Position numbers and translations under genes: made by a program. A stretch of DNA of 55,925 bases from Candidatus Kaiserbacteria bacterium. GTDB taxonomy: Bacteria; Patescibacteriota; Minisyncoccia; Phycocordibacterales; JABAAK01. Location: positions 1 to 55,925 of the forward strand of contig JAPPJI010000026.1 in assembly GCA_028820405.1 (NCBI GenBank). The letters run 5' to 3'. Below the pieces are notes generated by a model. That model did not search any database and was not told where the DNA came from. It was given only the letters and a program-made list of their open reading frames with translations. Position 1 is the first letter of the stretch. Each line of letters opens with the position of its first letter. Below are positions 35,545-48,517 of the stretch, one piece after another.

Positions 35545-35600
35545 TACTTGTAAAATGTAATTGACAAGTAATCTTGCTACATGTAAACTATATTTGACAA
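35545..35600 (+). promoter_or_regulatory. inverted/direct repeat operator candidate upstream of the AAA ATPase
   Basis: ATTACTTGT...ACAAGTAAT inverted repeat, then a second direct copy within TTTGACAAGTAATTG; TTGACAAGTAAT occurs twice. Confidence 0.5.
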
Positions 35601-35608
35601 GTAATTGT

Positions 35609-37057
35609 ATGGATTCCCAAAAAAGACAGTTGGTCAAAGATTACATAAAGAAGCAGATGGAGCGGGGTGATAATCGTGCGTCGGAGTATATTTTAGATGC
35701 GCAAGGAAAGAGAAATCCAAATCGTGATTGTTTTCTCACTTTGAAAAAATATTTACATGATTACACTCAAAAGAAGGGGAAAGACCCACTCCGCTTTTTT
35801 GTGCTATATGGATTGCGTGGTACAGGAAAGACAACATTACTCTCTCAATTGTATGGCGAAATATATCACATGAAATATCGATTACTGCTCTCTGTTGATG
35901 AAGTGGTCAAAGTTATGGGAGTCGCTTTGAAAGATGTGTTGGATGTGTATGAAGAGGTGCTCGGTTTTCCTTTTGGAAGTCTTCCGCAGCCAGTATTCCT
36001 CTTTCTCGATGAGGTTCATTTTGATGATGAGTGGGCTATTTTACTGAAAACAATTTACGACCGAACGAAAAACATTTTTTTTATCGTCACTGGTTCATCT
36101 GCACTTGCACTTCAGTCAACTCCTGACATTGCGAGGCGGGCGTTGTTTGAAAAAATACACCCCATGCAATTCACTGAGTACATCAAAATCCGTCATGGCG
36201 TGCATGAAAAAGAAGGGCTTTCGCAAAAACTTCGAGATATTGTTTTTAATTCATCAAGTGCAACTGAAGTGTATGATGCTTTACAAGACATTGAGTCGGA
36301 AATGCGAGAGTATTGGTCAGATCTGGAAAAAAAAGATATTAACGACATTGACACCTATCTTGGGTATGGAACATTTCCATTCACAGTCGTATCTCCGGGT
36401 GAGATGTCTGCCTACGAACAGATAAGTGAGATATTGGATAAAGTTGTCAACATTGACATACCTCATATTGAAGAATTTTCCACTGACACTATTTCAAAAA
36501 TACCCGAATTACTCTACACTCTCGCCGCAAGCGATCAGTGTGACACGGTCAATCTCTCAAAATCAACAGGAATCAGTCGTCCAACACTCAGCTCAATCCT
36601 CAAGACACTTGAAAAGACTGAGATAGTCTGGCGTGTTCGTCCGCATGGACAACCTCATAAGCAAGTTCGGAAACCATCAAAATATCTCTTCACTAGTCCC
36701 GCATTTCGGTCAATGTACTTCAATTTGATCGAGAGTGTTCCGAATCAAGGGGTCTTGAAGGGAAGAATGCTAGAAGATGCTGTCGGTCTTTCATTGAGAA
36801 GGCTTTTTTCTGAGAGACCGGGGTTTTCAGTGACATATGATAGTTCAAAAGGAGGAGCTGATTTTATTGTTCGTCGAGGGGAAAAGATTTTTATTATTGA
36901 AGTCGGATATGGTCATAAGAACATGGGTCAGGTTATTCAAACTATGGGTAAAATACAGCAATATTCCTATGGAATCATCATTTCAGAAAACCCTCTCAAC
37001 ATAGATCACGATAACAACATTGTTTGGGTGCCAATTAGGTATTTTTTACTAATCTGA
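35609..37057 (+). CDS. AAA ATPase with DUF4143-like C-terminal domain
   Basis: RFFVLYGLRGTGKTTLLSQL Walker A; VFLFLDEVHFDDEW; FFIVTGSSALAL; C-terminal nuclease-fold-like ADFIVRRGEKIFIIEVGYG. Confidence 0.85.
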   Translation: MDSQKRQLVKDYIKKQMERGDNRASEYILDAQGKRNPNRDCFLTLKKYLHDYTQKKGKDPLRFFVLYGLRGTGKTTLLSQLYGEIYHMKYRLLLSVDEVVKVMGVALKDVLDVYEEVLGFPFGSLPQPVFLFLDEVHFDDEWAILLKTIYDRTKNIFFIVTGSSALALQSTPDIARRALFEKIHPMQFTEYIKIRHGVHEKEGLSQKLRDIVFNSSSATEVYDALQDIESEMREYWSDLEKKDINDIDTYLGYGTFPFTVVSPGEMSAYEQISEILDKVVNIDIPHIEEFSTDTISKIPELLYTLAASDQCDTVNLSKSTGISRPTLSSILKTLEKTEIVWRVRPHGQPHKQVRKPSKYLFTSPAFRSMYFNLIESVPNQGVLKGRMLEDAVGLSLRRLFSERPGFSVTYDSSKGGADFIVRRGEKIFIIEVGYGHKNMGQVIQTMGKIQQYSYGIIISENPLNIDHDNNIVWVPIRYFLLI

Positions 37058-37134
37058 CATATCATATGCTGTAACTATTCTACTGGGTCCTCTTACCAGT
37101 CACAGCACCCAAACTCAAGAAATGCTCTACAGAA

Positions 37135-37165
37135 GAAAAAGGCCCGGATTACCCGATGGGCCCGG
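37135..37165 (-). terminator. terminator downstream of tRNA-Lys (minus strand)
   Basis: Minus: GGCCC atcgggtaatcc GGGCC TTTTTC. Confidence 0.55.
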
Positions 37166-37263
37166 TACCTTATTCACCTATAATTTAATAATGCTCCCAT
37201 GAAACACAAAGATCAAGTGCTTGTGTGTATAACATAAGACTGGTGAAAGGGTTTACTGTTGGG

Positions 37264-37336
37264 TCCGCCCACCAGGACTCGAACCTGGGACCGTCGGCTT
37301 AAAAGGCCGCCGCTCTACCAACTGAGCTATGGGCGG
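37264..37336 (-). tRNA. tRNA-Lys (anticodon UUU)
   Basis: Minus strand CCGCCCA TA GCTCAGTTGGTAGAGC ... CTTTTAA loop ... CCAGG TTCGAGT CCTGG TGGGCGG A. Confidence 0.95.
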
Positions 37337-44401: not shown

Positions 44402-45847
44402 ATGGAAGGTAAACTGACACAAAGGCATATTTTAGAAATACCTGAGGAGTCCAATGAGATCGAGTTTAAGCGGGTTGGGGGAAATGATAGTAGTGTTGTT
44501 GGGAACATACTCAAAACTGTTGTTGCCATGGCCAACACCAATGGCGGTGTTATTGTTTTGGGTGTTGATGATCCTGAAAAAACAAAACTAAAAGGAGTTG
44601 AGAGAGTGTTTGGTGTTGAGGAAAATAAGGAAAATTTTGATGAGGTTATGCGTGGTCTAAGCAAAATTACACCAGTACCAACTGTAATTAGTGATGAGGT
44701 TGTAGCATCAAACGGGAAAACTATTGTTGTGTTGAGGATCTCCAAAGCAGTCGACTCATTTTGCAGTAGAGATGATAAAGTGTTTACTCGTCTTAGTAAA
44801 AGTAATAAAGAGTTGAACCTTCAAGAAATCATTAAGTTCAATTATGCAAAAGGTTTCATCAAAGCAGGAGAAGAGTTGATTGATGATGTTGATATTGGTC
44901 TATTGGAAACTGACCACTATCGTGGTTGGGTCAAGAAAAATACCCTAGATCCTGATTCTGAAGGTATTGCGTATGTGCTTAAATCTAAGGGTTTGGCGAA
45001 GAAAGATGAAGAAACCAATGTCTTGAAGCCAACACGATCTGCTGTGATGTTGTTTGCTGAGTACCCTACCAATCTTATGGATACGAAGTGTGCAGTGAAG
45101 GTTGCGGTGTACACCACCAACACAGAAGTTTTTAGCACAACGCCAAACTTTGTCGGGGTTCCGAAGATTATTCAAGGTCCGATGATCAAGATTATACAGG
45201 ACACACAAGAGTATGTTTTAGAGGTGCTTAATGCTGGTATTGGGATGAGTGGTTCAGGATTTAGAACTAAGTCTAAATTGCCAGAACGAGTGATTACAGA
45301 GGGAATTACTAATGCGGTCATACATCGAGATTATCACGCAAAGCAAGATATAGAGATCAAAATATTCCCTAATCGAGTTGAGGTCATTAATCCAGGTCTG
45401 TTTCCTTTTAACATAACAAAAGGCAATATCGGAGAAGAGAATGCGGGACAGTATAGGAATGATTCTCTTGTTAAAACACTTCGTGAATTTCCGGAACCGC
45501 CTAATCTTGACAGGAATGAAGGTGTTCGAGCAATGCGTAATCAGATGAAGAAGAACAATCTTTATCCTCCAGTCTTTGTAACATATCCAGACTTGGACAA
45601 GCGCTCTGTAAAATTGGTACTCAAGACTGAAGAGCGGACAGCTGAATGGGAGAAGGTGCAAGAGTACTTAGAAAGGGAGAAGTCTGTGGACAATAAGACG
45701 GCACGGAAAATAACAGGAATTACTTCTGCGGTCAAGATGTCACGAATGCTAGGTGGGTGGGCTACGGAAGGATTGTTGGAAAAGATATCTCCAGTAGGGA
45801 GCAAGAAGGGTACACTTTATATTCTTCCATCAAAGAAAATTATATAA
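44402..45847 (+). CDS. AlbA_2 / Schlafen-like DNA-binding ATP-binding protein (with HATPase_c_4-like region)
   Basis: ESNEIEFKRVGGNDSSVVGNILKTVVAMANTNGGVIVLGVDD; PERVITEGITNAVIHRDYHAKQDIEIKIFPNRVEVINPG. Confidence 0.87.
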   Translation: MEGKLTQRHILEIPEESNEIEFKRVGGNDSSVVGNILKTVVAMANTNGGVIVLGVDDPEKTKLKGVERVFGVEENKENFDEVMRGLSKITPVPTVISDEVVASNGKTIVVLRISKAVDSFCSRDDKVFTRLSKSNKELNLQEIIKFNYAKGFIKAGEELIDDVDIGLLETDHYRGWVKKNTLDPDSEGIAYVLKSKGLAKKDEETNVLKPTRSAVMLFAEYPTNLMDTKCAVKVAVYTTNTEVFSTTPNFVGVPKIIQGPMIKIIQDTQEYVLEVLNAGIGMSGSGFRTKSKLPERVITEGITNAVIHRDYHAKQDIEIKIFPNRVEVINPGLFPFNITKGNIGEENAGQYRNDSLVKTLREFPEPPNLDRNEGVRAMRNQMKKNNLYPPVFVTYPDLDKRSVKLVLKTEERTAEWEKVQEYLEREKSVDNKTARKITGITSAVKMSRMLGGWATEGLLEKISPVGSKKGTLYILPSKKII

Positions 45848-45858
45848 ATCCTTGATTT

Positions 45859-46034
45859 GTGAATAAAATTATATCCTTGTTTTTCAAGATATTTTTGAGT
45901 TTTATTTAATTTTGATTTCGCAAATAAAAATTATATCCTTGTTTTTCAAGATATTTTTGAGTTTTATTTAATTTTGATTTCGCAAATAAAAATTATATCC
46001 TTGTTTTTCAAGATATTTTTGAGTTTTATTTAAG
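45859..46034. repeat. 62-bp tandem direct repeats (about 2.7 copies)
   Basis: Unit CAAATAAAAATTATATCCTTGTTTTTCAAGATATTTTTGAGTTTTATTTAATTTTGATTTCG; the CCTTG anchor recurs at 45875, 45937 and 45999 (period 62). Confidence 0.95.
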
Positions 46035-46131: not shown

Positions 46132-46842
46132 ATGTCAACAAGAAACCAAAATCTTTGGGTGCCGTTTGCAGATATTATGACTGCACTCATGTTGATTTTT
46201 CTCTTGATTGTTGTTGTAATGTTTTCACTTCAAGATGACCGTCAGGAGAGCGTGGTTTTGCATGTCGCACACATTGAAAAGTTTGATAGTATTACAGACG
46301 ACCTGTTAAAAGATTTAAATAACGCCTTTTCGGGTAAGCGTGATGAATGGGGAATTCGCGTGTCAGAAGATTTGACGGTAAAGTTTGAAAAACCTGAGAT
46401 CATCTTTGATCAAGACCAATCAGAGATTAAGGATGGTTTTAAGTCCATATTAGATAGTTTTGTTCCGACTTATCTTTCCATCATCTCAAAAGAAAAGTAT
46501 CAGGATAGTATCAAGGAGGTCAGAATAGAAGGACATACTGCGGATGTTTCGCAAGTGCATGATACATATATGAAGACGGTTCATCTTTCGCAGAATCGTG
46601 CACGTGAGATATTGAGATACATATTAGAAAGCCAGCACTTCAACAATCTTGGAGAGGAAGAAAAGAATAGGTATACATTTCTTTTAAGTGCGAATGGGTT
46701 TGGTTATGGAAGGACGATTGATGATGACGGCAATTTTGTTTATAGCACCGGAAGACCAGTCAGTTCAAACTCAAGAAGGGTTGAGTTTAGAGTTGTCACC
46801 AATAGTGATGAGGTTGTGAAAAAAATAATTGGGCAAAGGTAA
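46132..46842 (+). CDS. MotB/ZorB-like membrane protein with OmpA-like peptidoglycan-binding domain
   Basis: MSTRNQNLWVPFADIMTALMLIFLLIVVVMFSL (TM with Asp), VRIEGHTADVSQ...LSQNRAREILRYIL...NSRRVEFRVV. Confidence 0.87.
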   Translation: MSTRNQNLWVPFADIMTALMLIFLLIVVVMFSLQDDRQESVVLHVAHIEKFDSITDDLLKDLNNAFSGKRDEWGIRVSEDLTVKFEKPEIIFDQDQSEIKDGFKSILDSFVPTYLSIISKEKYQDSIKEVRIEGHTADVSQVHDTYMKTVHLSQNRAREILRYILESQHFNNLGEEEKNRYTFLLSANGFGYGRTIDDDGNFVYSTGRPVSSNSRRVEFRVVTNSDEVVKKIIGQR

Positions 46843-46843
46843 T

Positions 46844-47578
46844 ATGATAGACGTAATTAGCGAATTTTTTGCAAATAATGTTGGTGTTTCGATACAGTTC
46901 GCCATACCAGGCATTTTTGTTCTAGTTATCATCATGGTCTGTCTTGCGATAAGAGGAAGGCGGTCCCCTGAAACAATTCAGGGAGTTGCCACTCTGCTTG
47001 GTATTGCAGGTACGTTTGTCGGTATAGTTTATGCACTATATGGGCTTGATGTGTATGACGTCAGTAGTAGTGTGTCAAAATTGCTTGATGGTATTTATCC
47101 AGCATTTTTATCCTCACTTTTTGGTGTAATTATGTCTTTGTCAGTTTATCTTTTTCCGAGATTTTGGAGAGATAAAAGAAGACTGCCGAGTGATGATATT
47201 GGTCCTCAGATTCTACATGAATTAAAAACAATGAATGATAATCTTGGTGATTTTGTACAAAAGGTTACAGGAGAATTGGGTGAAGTTATTAAAGGGCTCG
47301 GTAAAGAATTACAAGATTCAATCGGAGATCCTGTTAGTCAGTTAGATGGTTCTGTCGAAAAACTGATTGAACTACAAAAAGAACACGAAAGAACACTTGA
47401 GCGCACAGAAAAAGAGTTGAGTGTTGGAATAAAATCCGTTATGAAAGTTGGACTAGAAGACCTCACAGGGAAACTCAAGGCAATATCTGAAGTGCTAGTG
47501 AAAGATTATAGCAGTGTGCAGGATGCAATAAGGGAAATAAAAGAGATGAAGGATGCTGTTCCTGATCGTAAAAAATAA
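46844..47578 (+). CDS. MotA/TolQ/ExbB proton-channel-like protein (ZorA-like) with short coiled-coil tail
   Basis: IQGVATLLGIAGTFVGIVYALYGLDVYDVSSSVSKLLDGIYPAFLSSLFGVIMSLSVYLFPRFW, then ~120 aa charged helical tail. Confidence 0.83.
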   Translation: MIDVISEFFANNVGVSIQFAIPGIFVLVIIMVCLAIRGRRSPETIQGVATLLGIAGTFVGIVYALYGLDVYDVSSSVSKLLDGIYPAFLSSLFGVIMSLSVYLFPRFWRDKRRLPSDDIGPQILHELKTMNDNLGDFVQKVTGELGEVIKGLGKELQDSIGDPVSQLDGSVEKLIELQKEHERTLERTEKELSVGIKSVMKVGLEDLTGKLKAISEVLVKDYSSVQDAIREIKEMKDAVPDRKK

Positions 47579-47581
47579 TTT

Positions 47582-48310
47582 ATGGAGGATCTTAAATGCT
47601 TAAAACCTTGGGGGTTTCTGAAAGATATTGATGCAGAGCAGGTTGATTTTGTTTTTATAGATGACGTAACCAAAAAAGCACGTAAAGGAGAACTTCTTAC
47701 AAAGAATGAAGTTGATGTTTTGGTGAGGCTGAGTAAGTCGAGAGAGCCTTTTATTGACAATGGAGGAATGCCATATGTTTTATTTATCTATGATCGTCAA
47801 AGAGGATTTTTCCAACAAAACCCACAAGGAGAATGGAAGTATAAGTTTCATTTCATGTATTGCGAGACCTTGGAAAAGATGGACAAAAAAGGGACATTCC
47901 CGAAATATGCAGCTAAACATGACTTACAGGATCCATACTTTGATTCATTAAGTGGCAAGAAAGAAATGCTAGATGTGTGCAAGAATTGCTTAAATGCTTT
48001 TTCTGCAAAAACTAAGAGTTTTAATAAAAATGTTAATAGTTTTAATGTAAAAGAATTCTTTGATACTTATGGTTGGCAAGATTTGCCACAACCAACTGGT
48101 ATTAGACATGGTGACTATACACCTGATTGGTCTGATATTGCTAGAAAGAAAAAAGAATCAGTTGGGTGGGCTTGTGAGAAGTGTGGAAAGAGTTGTCTGA
48201 GTGATAGACAATCGCTACAAGTTCATCATAAAGATGGTGTGAAAAATAATAATCTTTCCGATAATCTGATAGCGCTTTGTTATCTCTGTCACAAAAAAGA
48301 ACACGAGTGA
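47582..48310 (+). CDS. HNH endonuclease domain protein
   Basis: C-terminal WACEKCGKSCLSDRQSLQVHHKDGVKNNNLSDNLIALCYLCHKKEHE; extra CKNC motif upstream. Confidence 0.88.
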   Translation: MEDLKCLKPWGFLKDIDAEQVDFVFIDDVTKKARKGELLTKNEVDVLVRLSKSREPFIDNGGMPYVLFIYDRQRGFFQQNPQGEWKYKFHFMYCETLEKMDKKGTFPKYAAKHDLQDPYFDSLSGKKEMLDVCKNCLNAFSAKTKSFNKNVNSFNVKEFFDTYGWQDLPQPTGIRHGDYTPDWSDIARKKKESVGWACEKCGKSCLSDRQSLQVHHKDGVKNNNLSDNLIALCYLCHKKEHE

Positions 48311-48445
48311 ACAATTAGGTCAAACCAGATTGATCCCGACTTGGTGGCACGAGAAAGTGTGAACAAAGAAACCCCTATTGTTTTCTACAAGTGGTTGCTG
48401 GTGGGAAGGTTGTGTGGGTTTCCTCATTCTGTCACCATATTCAAG

Positions 48446-48517
48446 TCTCCCCGGCAGGAGTCGAACCTACATTACAAGCTCCGCAAGCTTGCGTTCTATC
48501 CATTAAACTACGGGGAG
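48446..48517 (-). tRNA. tRNA-Arg (anticodon GCG)
   Basis: Minus: CTCCCCG TA GTTTAATGGATAGAAC G CAAGC TTGCGGA GCTTG TAAT GTAGG TTCGACT CCTGC CGGGGAG A. Confidence 0.92.

What the first reader, a model, noticed from the sequence alone, without database searches (positions are those of the whole stretch)
46132..48310. Compact MotB-MotA-HNH operon: Zorya-like motor-coupled nuclease candidate
Three tightly spaced co-directional genes encode (i) a MotB/ZorB-like protein with a TM Asp (FADIMTALM) and an OmpA-type peptidoglycan-binding domain, (ii) a MotA/TolQ/ExbB-like channel protein with a cytoplasmic coiled-coil tail of only ~120 aa, and (iii) a 242-aa HNH nuclease. Established knowledge: Zorya anti-phage systems combine ZorA (MotA-like) and ZorB (MotB-like) with effectors, and type II carries ZorE, an HNH-containing protein. 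Here the order is B-A-HNH, the ZorA tail looks much shorter than in described systems, and the HNH protein has an unfamiliar N-terminal ~140 aa. The operon is AT-rich relative to the flanks and ends beside a tRNA. I infer a minimal Zorya-like, possibly new, subtype in a CPR-type genome.
Basis: partly seen in the sequence, partly recalled or inferred. Interest (0 to 1): 0.86.

Follow-up and report, generated by a model that had tools for sequence, protein, structure and literature searches.

The report
Compact type II Zorya phage-defence operon
A tiny parasitic-type bacterium carries a stripped-down version of Zorya, a known anti-phage motor-plus-nuclease system, with its genes in an unusual order and the shortest motor "rod" found in about 95 relatives, so it could test how much of that rod the defence needs.

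Summary
The three genes are really there: ZorB 46132-46842 (236 aa), ZorA 46844-47578 (244 aa), ZorE-like HNH 47582-48310 (242 aa). PADLOC profiles call all three type II Zorya (E 2e-63, 3e-22, 2e-40). Solved type II ZorAB (8VVI) is the best PDB relative of both motor proteins, by sequence and, for ZorA, by fold. The TM Asp, the main peptidoglycan residues and the HNH/zinc residues are kept. Known type II loci run A-B-E (76 sampled). B-A-E occurs only here and in three other CPR-type genomes: Ca. Kaiserbacteria L012 and same-order L128 and L129. Their ZorBs form one supported clade. ZorA is not cut at its end. The base block and tip block of its rod remain, and the spacer between them is 2 aa, against 49-242 aa elsewhere. 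The locus is low-GC, sits 3' of tRNA-Arg, and is missing from a same-genus genome at the same place. Verdict: a horizontally acquired, divergent, compact type II Zorya. The gene set is not new; the architecture is a new variant. Defence activity is untested.

The parts
46132..46842 (+). zorB (ZorB2): MotB-like, TM Asp D14, OmpA/peptidoglycan-binding domain, 236 aa
   Evidence: PADLOC ZorB2 1.8e-63; PDB 8vvi_A 3e-33; D14, H135 and R215 kept
46844..47578 (+). zorA (ZorA2): three predicted membrane-domain helices plus a ~136-aa cytoplasmic tail, 244 aa
   Evidence: PADLOC ZorA2 2.5e-22; Pfam MotA_ExbB; best PDB fold match 8vvi_C
47276..47404 (+). ZorA rod base block (ZorA residues 145-187)
   Evidence: 17.9 bits to a base-block HMM that excludes the window; best of 1000 shuffles 5.5
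47411..47551 (+). ZorA rod tip block (ZorA residues 190-236), 2 aa after the base block
   Evidence: 24.4 bits to a tip-block HMM that excludes the window; best of 1000 shuffles 5.5; spacer lengths
47582..48310 (+). zorE (ZorE2): HNH nuclease/nickase homologue, 242 aa
   Evidence: PADLOC ZorE2 1.5e-40; Pfam HNH; invariant Cys/His set
45865..46033 (.). 62-bp perfect tandem repeat, 2.7 copies, directly upstream of zorB; possible control region
   Evidence: no other copy in the genome; role unknown
44402..45847 (+). Low-GC neighbour: SLFN_AlbA_2 + HATPase_c_4 (RecG C-terminal-like) protein, co-acquired or accessory; not seen next to the other B-A-E loci
   Evidence: Pfam 9e-16 and 2e-11; GC 0.40
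48445..48517 (-). tRNA-Arg(gcg); the locus lies on its 3' side
   Evidence: same tRNA without Zorya in the same-genus genome L122

Best explanation
This is a horizontally acquired type II Zorya anti-phage system of a compact lineage with gene order B-A-E, found so far only in CPR-type (Patescibacteria) genomes. Shown here: the three components and their intact key residues, the shared gene order and clade, the shortened ZorA rod, and the absence of the locus in a same-genus genome at the same place. Inferred from published work on type II Zorya (PMC11890865): ZorA5B2 sits in the membrane; envelope damage by an injecting phage lets ZorB bind peptidoglycan and opens ion flow past Asp14; ZorA turns; and its cytoplasmic tail recruits the ZorE nickase to the membrane, where ZorE nicks incoming DNA and also host DNA. 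Proposed here: the minimal rod keeps the two conserved ends, base and tip, so ZorE would be held within about one helix-bundle length of the membrane.
For: All three proteins match type II profiles. ZorB matches solved type II ZorB at 3e-33, and flagellar MotB only at 0.005. ZorA's best fold match in the whole PDB is 8vvi_C, followed by other Zorya entries. D14, H135 and R215 are kept; HNH H215/H216, N228 and H237 and zinc C198, C201, C233 and C236 are kept. Three further CPR-type genomes carry the same B-A-E operon, and the four ZorBs form one branch at SH-aLRT 99. The rod base and tip blocks are recognisable far above shuffles. L128 lies beside type III R-M mod/res genes. The empty site in G381 and the low GC support acquisition.
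Against: No defence assay exists for this lineage. The scores miss NCBIfam's equivalog cut-offs (99 of 400, 42 of 700, 98 of 600 bits). Two of the four tested type II peptidoglycan residues differ (S143 to A137, R230 to K230). The window proteins sit on long branches, and ZorA is far shorter than any ZorA shown to work, so loss or change of function is possible. The placement of ZorE is slightly less clean: one non-B-A-E row lies inside or beside the group.
Confidence: 0.85

Rival explanations
1. A decaying Zorya copy: ZorA has lost the middle of its rod by deletion and no longer works, and the operon is on its way out.
For: Shortest ZorA of all sampled type II loci, 2-aa spacer; long branches in the tree; rod deletions inactivate studied systems (ZorA II delta 106-550 in PMC11890865).
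Against: All three frames are open with tight spacing; both rod ends are kept; the catalytic, ion-path and main peptidoglycan residues are kept; relatives in the same clade also have the shortest spacers (49, 49, 68 aa), so shortening is a trend of the lineage.
Confidence: 0.12
2. A working but distinct subtype: the short rod changes the mechanism, for example ZorE binds the motor directly at the membrane instead of being reached by a long rotating rod.
For: Gene order and rod length set the clade apart.
Against: Same gene set and same conserved ends as ordinary type II; intermediate rod lengths exist (49-68 aa spacers in L012, L129, L128), so there is a continuum.
Confidence: 0.2
3. A TolQR/ExbBD-like or flagellar-stator pair with an unrelated HNH gene next to it.
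For: General MotA/ExbB and MotB/OmpA domain matches.
Against: Zorya profiles beat all Mot models by many orders, no TolR/ExbD or TolQ/ExbB/MotA family model is matched, Zorya is the top fold match, and the HNH protein is ZorE and is conserved in the homologous loci.
Confidence: 0.01

Closest known systems
Type II Zorya of E. coli (zorA2-zorB2-zorE; plasmid copy L010, NZ_CP127005; E. coli ATCC 8739 in PMC11890865)
   Same: Same three components; same TM Asp, EGHT peptidoglycan motif and HNH/zinc core.
   Different: Order A-B-E; ZorA 550 aa with a 229-aa base-tip spacer (here 244 aa, 2 aa); ZorE 367 aa with a C-terminal extension (here 242 aa, none); about 21-32% identity.
Sulfuricurvum kujiense type II ZorAB (PDB 8VVI)
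   Same: Closest solved structure: ZorB 3e-33, ZorA membrane part 1e-9; ZorA model aligns to 8vvi_C with TM 0.65 of the target.
   Different: ZorA 378 aa, rod residues ~110-378, about twice as long.
Candidatus Kaiserbacteria NORP88 locus L012, and same-order genomes G857 (L128) and G959 (L129)
   Same: B-A-E order, short ZorE, short ZorA, one ZorB clade.
   Different: ZorA 339, 345 and 325 aa with spacers of 49, 68 and 49 aa; different genomic places (type III R-M island; between rpsI and grpE-dnaK).
Bacteroidota loci with B-A order (L014, L017, L025, L028, L030, L031)
   Same: zorB before zorA.
   Different: ZorA ~510 aa; where scanned (L014) the next gene is an EH_Signature (ZorC-like) protein, not ZorE; different clade.

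Membership tests
Zorya type II | ZorA, ZorB and the HNH protein ZorE encoded together | tested here: met
   PADLOC ZorB2, ZorA2 and ZorE2 best hits in one operon
Zorya type II | ZorB transmembrane Asp needed for ion flow and defence (D24 in E. coli) | tested here: met
   D14 aligned to E. coli D24
Zorya type II | ZorB peptidoglycan-binding residues H141, S143, R215, R230 (E. coli numbering) | tested here: inconclusive
   H135 and R215 kept; S to A137 and R to K230. The A is shared by L012, L128, L129 and Spirosoma L005; position 230 varies widely among homologues
Zorya type II | ZorA with extended cytoplasmic helical rod | tested here: inconclusive
   Rod present with base and tip blocks but only ~136 aa; spacer 2 aa against 49-242 aa in the others
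Zorya type II | ZorE HNH and zinc residues intact | tested here: met
   H90, C94, C133, C136, C198, C201, H215, H216, N228, C233, C236, H237 present
Zorya type II | Gene order A-B-E (usual, not a formal criterion) | tested here: not met
   B-A-E here and in three relatives; A-B-E in 76 sampled loci
Zorya type II, NCBIfam equivalogs NF041787, NF041792, NF041791 | Score above the curated equivalog cut-off | tested here: not met
   99 of 400, 42 of 700, 98 of 600 bits. These are naming cut-offs, probably tuned to close orthologues; same family, divergent member
Zorya type II | Protection against phage; 5:2 ZorA:ZorB assembly | not testable with these tools
   Needs experiment or multimer modelling
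Zorya types I and III | ZorC+ZorD (type I) or ZorF+ZorG (type III) genes | tested here: not met
   No such gene found among the neighbours examined; upstream is AlbA_2/HATPase, downstream tRNA and an unmatched secreted-like ORF
Flagellar MotAB, TolQR, ExbBD | Best match to those families rather than to Zorya | tested here: not met
   ZorB2 NCBIfam 4e-28 against MotS 2e-5; no MotA/TolQ/ExbB equivalog hit for ZorA

The most novel reading that the evidence does not exclude
The B-A-E loci are a separate CPR-adapted subtype of type II Zorya, and this member works with almost no rod: base and tip are fused, showing that rod length is not needed for sensing or for ZorE recruitment and that only its two ends are.
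Probability: 0.3. Interest if true: 0.65.

Novelty: new variant of a known kind. Interest (0 to 1): 0.5.

Why it matters
How the long ZorA rod passes a signal from the envelope to the nuclease is an open question in Zorya biology. A natural system whose rod has lost nearly all of its spacer but kept both conserved ends makes the question directly testable: is the rod a ruler or lever, or just a holder for a base and a tip? The base-spacer-tip layout found across about 30 ZorA proteins gives exact places to cut and graft. It also places a peptidoglycan-sensing motor defence in cells thought to have a much simpler envelope than the usual hosts of Zorya; that last point rests on general knowledge, not on tests here.

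Tried and rejected
Simple C-terminal truncation of ZorA: rejected, the tip block is present at 24.4 bits against at most 5.5 in 1000 shuffles and 14.2 in middle segments of other ZorA. TolQR/ExbBD/stator identity: rejected. A direct-repeat remnant of tRNA-guided integration: none found. Promoters and terminators around the operon: no more than in shuffles. The 62-bp repeat unit as a strong RNA hairpin: not better than shuffles (z -0.6 and -1.3). AlbA_2 gene as a fixed partner: not next to L012, L128 or L129. Search of viral contigs with ZorE alone: no relative. DNA match of the left flank in same-genus genomes: none, so synteny was set by metG, tRNA-Arg and the downstream ORF instead. The weak hits in the wider draws are not Zorya as far as examined: the G451 hit (L130) is an OmpA lipoprotein beside an autotransporter-like gene, while G098 and G627 are weak matches inside long frames and were not followed. 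ZorE fold search: only the HNH part matches (DotN, Cap5, Cas-HNH, T4 EndoVII), none below E 0.001, so the N-terminal fold stays unassigned. The main Zorya type I structure paper (Hu et al.) is not held in the library.

Full report
What is there. Three co-directional genes lie at 46132-48310, separated by 1 and 3 bases. The ZorB start at 46132 is supported by alignment with close homologues, which begin at the same place. PADLOC profiles give ZorB2 1.8e-63, ZorA2 2.5e-22 and ZorE2 1.5e-40 as best hits. PDB searches give the type II ZorAB complex 8VVI first for ZorB (3e-33) and ZorA (1e-9); flagellar MotB follows at 0.005. A predicted ZorA model (mean pLDDT 75, tail less certain) has 8vvi_C as its best match in the whole PDB, with other Zorya entries next; the Foldseek E-value is weak (0.09) though the probability is 1.00. 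The scores are below NCBIfam's equivalog cut-offs, so these are divergent members.

Residues. ZorB D14 aligns with E. coli D24, and H135 and R215 align with the peptidoglycan residues H141 and R215; S143 is Ala and R230 is Lys here. The roles of these residues come from PMC11890865. ZorE keeps the HNH and zinc residues. Its N-terminal region carries H90, C94, C133 and C136, invariant in 51 ZorE proteins, which suggests a second metal site (inference). That region is therefore part of the ZorE family and not a new domain. Foldseek with the ZorE model matches only the HNH part.

Relatives. One scan of GTDB genomes and two of viral contigs, plus plasmid and phage records, gave 105 loci with ZorA and ZorB including the window. 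Of these, 76 are A-B-E, 18 A-B without a recognised ZorE, 9 B-A without ZorE, and 2 B-A-E: the window and L012, Candidatus Kaiserbacteria NORP88. A survey of 397 genomes of the window's own order then found two more strong loci, G857 (L128) and G959 (L129), both B-A-E, confirmed by PADLOC. A second draw of 308 genomes found no others. Wider draws of 380 phylum and 384 class genomes found only the window's own (plus one weak match each), and 97 relatives, including two of the same genus, had none. So Zorya is rare here and patchy. A second CPR record, L015 (Candidatus Parcubacteria KatS3mg096), is A-B-E and its ZorB groups with Bacteroidota, so CPR probably acquired Zorya at least twice.

Trees. 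In a careful ZorB tree, window and L012 are sisters (100/93). With L128 and L129 added, the four B-A-E ZorBs are one side of a branch (SH-aLRT 99; quick method). In the ZorE tree the four fall in a set of five at 99, with one other row. B-A order also arose in Bacteroidota, where in L014 the third gene is an EH_Signature (ZorC-like) protein.

The short rod. Intact ZorA of A-B-E loci is 363-693 aa, median about 480. The B-A-E group has 339, 345, 325 and 244 aa. Across about 30 ZorA tails two conserved blocks can be modelled: a base block around the LNxAVxKLxxWQ motif and a tip block around LSEKFVxDY. The spacer between them is 49-242 aa in the other proteins. In the window, which was left out of both models, the base block is at residues 145-187 (17.9 bits; best of 1000 shuffles 5.5) and the tip block at 190-236 (24.4 bits; best shuffle 5.5; best middle segment of another ZorA 14.2), with a 2-aa spacer. 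The other proteins score far higher on these models, but they were used to build them. The rod is thus shortened from inside with both ends kept. The published statement that component size is well conserved within each type (PMC11890865) does not hold for this wider set. A tail deletion from residue 106 abolishes E. coli type II defence in that paper; shorter internal deletions of a type II rod are not described in what I could read.

Origin. The three genes and the AlbA_2/HATPase gene upstream have GC 0.35-0.40 against about 0.50-0.53 in most neighbours. The B-A-E operons in L012, L128 and L129 are also lower in GC than their flanks. In the same-genus single-contig genome G381 the order metG - two unrelated genes - tRNA-Arg(gcg) - homologue of the downstream ORF is kept without Zorya or AlbA_2, so the stretch between metG and tRNA-Arg is a variable site and the locus is an insertion relative to G381. 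No att-like repeat of the tRNA end was found, and the mechanism of insertion is unknown. L128 lies beside type III R-M genes, a defence-island setting.

How it most likely works. By homology with studied type II Zorya (PMC11890865; a role for ZorE on DNA intermediates in PMC13192584): ZorA5B2 in the membrane, ZorB binding to peptidoglycan on phage attack, ion flow past Asp14, rotation or rearrangement of ZorA, recruitment of the ZorE nickase. None of these steps was tested for this lineage. The specific proposal is that the fused base-tip rod still recruits ZorE, close to the membrane.

Novelty. By gene content it is type II Zorya. The B-A-E order with the minimal rod is a variant that I did not find described: no paper held in the library joins Zorya with CPR bacteria, and the one that holds both 'Zorya' and 'Patescibacteria' is a marine-biofilm study that I did not read. 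That is a limited library.

Noticed in passing
L105:4995-6448 (IMG/VR UViG_3300048881_000734, 69 kb): A viral contig carries a zorB-zorA pair without zorE (ZorA 247 aa), near a thymidine kinase, a nucleotidyltransferase and a tail-fibre-like gene. Its ZorA keeps the base block (31 bits) but has no tip block (-0.6 bits): a possible phage-borne decoy or captured motor.
   Followed up: partly
L014, L017, L025, L028, L030, L031: Bacteroidota loci have ZorB close to type II ZorB, order B-A, and (L014, scanned) an EH_Signature (ZorC-like) protein in place of ZorE: a possible type I/II hybrid.
   Followed up: partly
window 35561-37336: A second low-GC gene (AAA_14/DUF4143 ATPase, GC 0.395) lies next to tRNA-Lys 37262-37336, the same pattern as the Zorya locus beside tRNA-Arg.
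   Followed up: no
window 45865-46033: A perfect 62-bp tandem repeat, 2.7 copies, upstream of zorB; present nowhere else in the genome; role unknown.
   Followed up: partly
L060, L061, L065, L069, L078, L081, L082: Helicobacter(aceae) loci have very long ZorA (815-913 aa) with no recognised ZorE after ZorB.
   Followed up: no
L011 (MT837639.1) and L107: Short records labelled phage carry a ZorA-ZorB pair followed by a ~620-650-aa gene that resembles the ZorC-like protein of L014 by eye; in L011 the next gene looks like an SNF2-type helicase.
   Followed up: no
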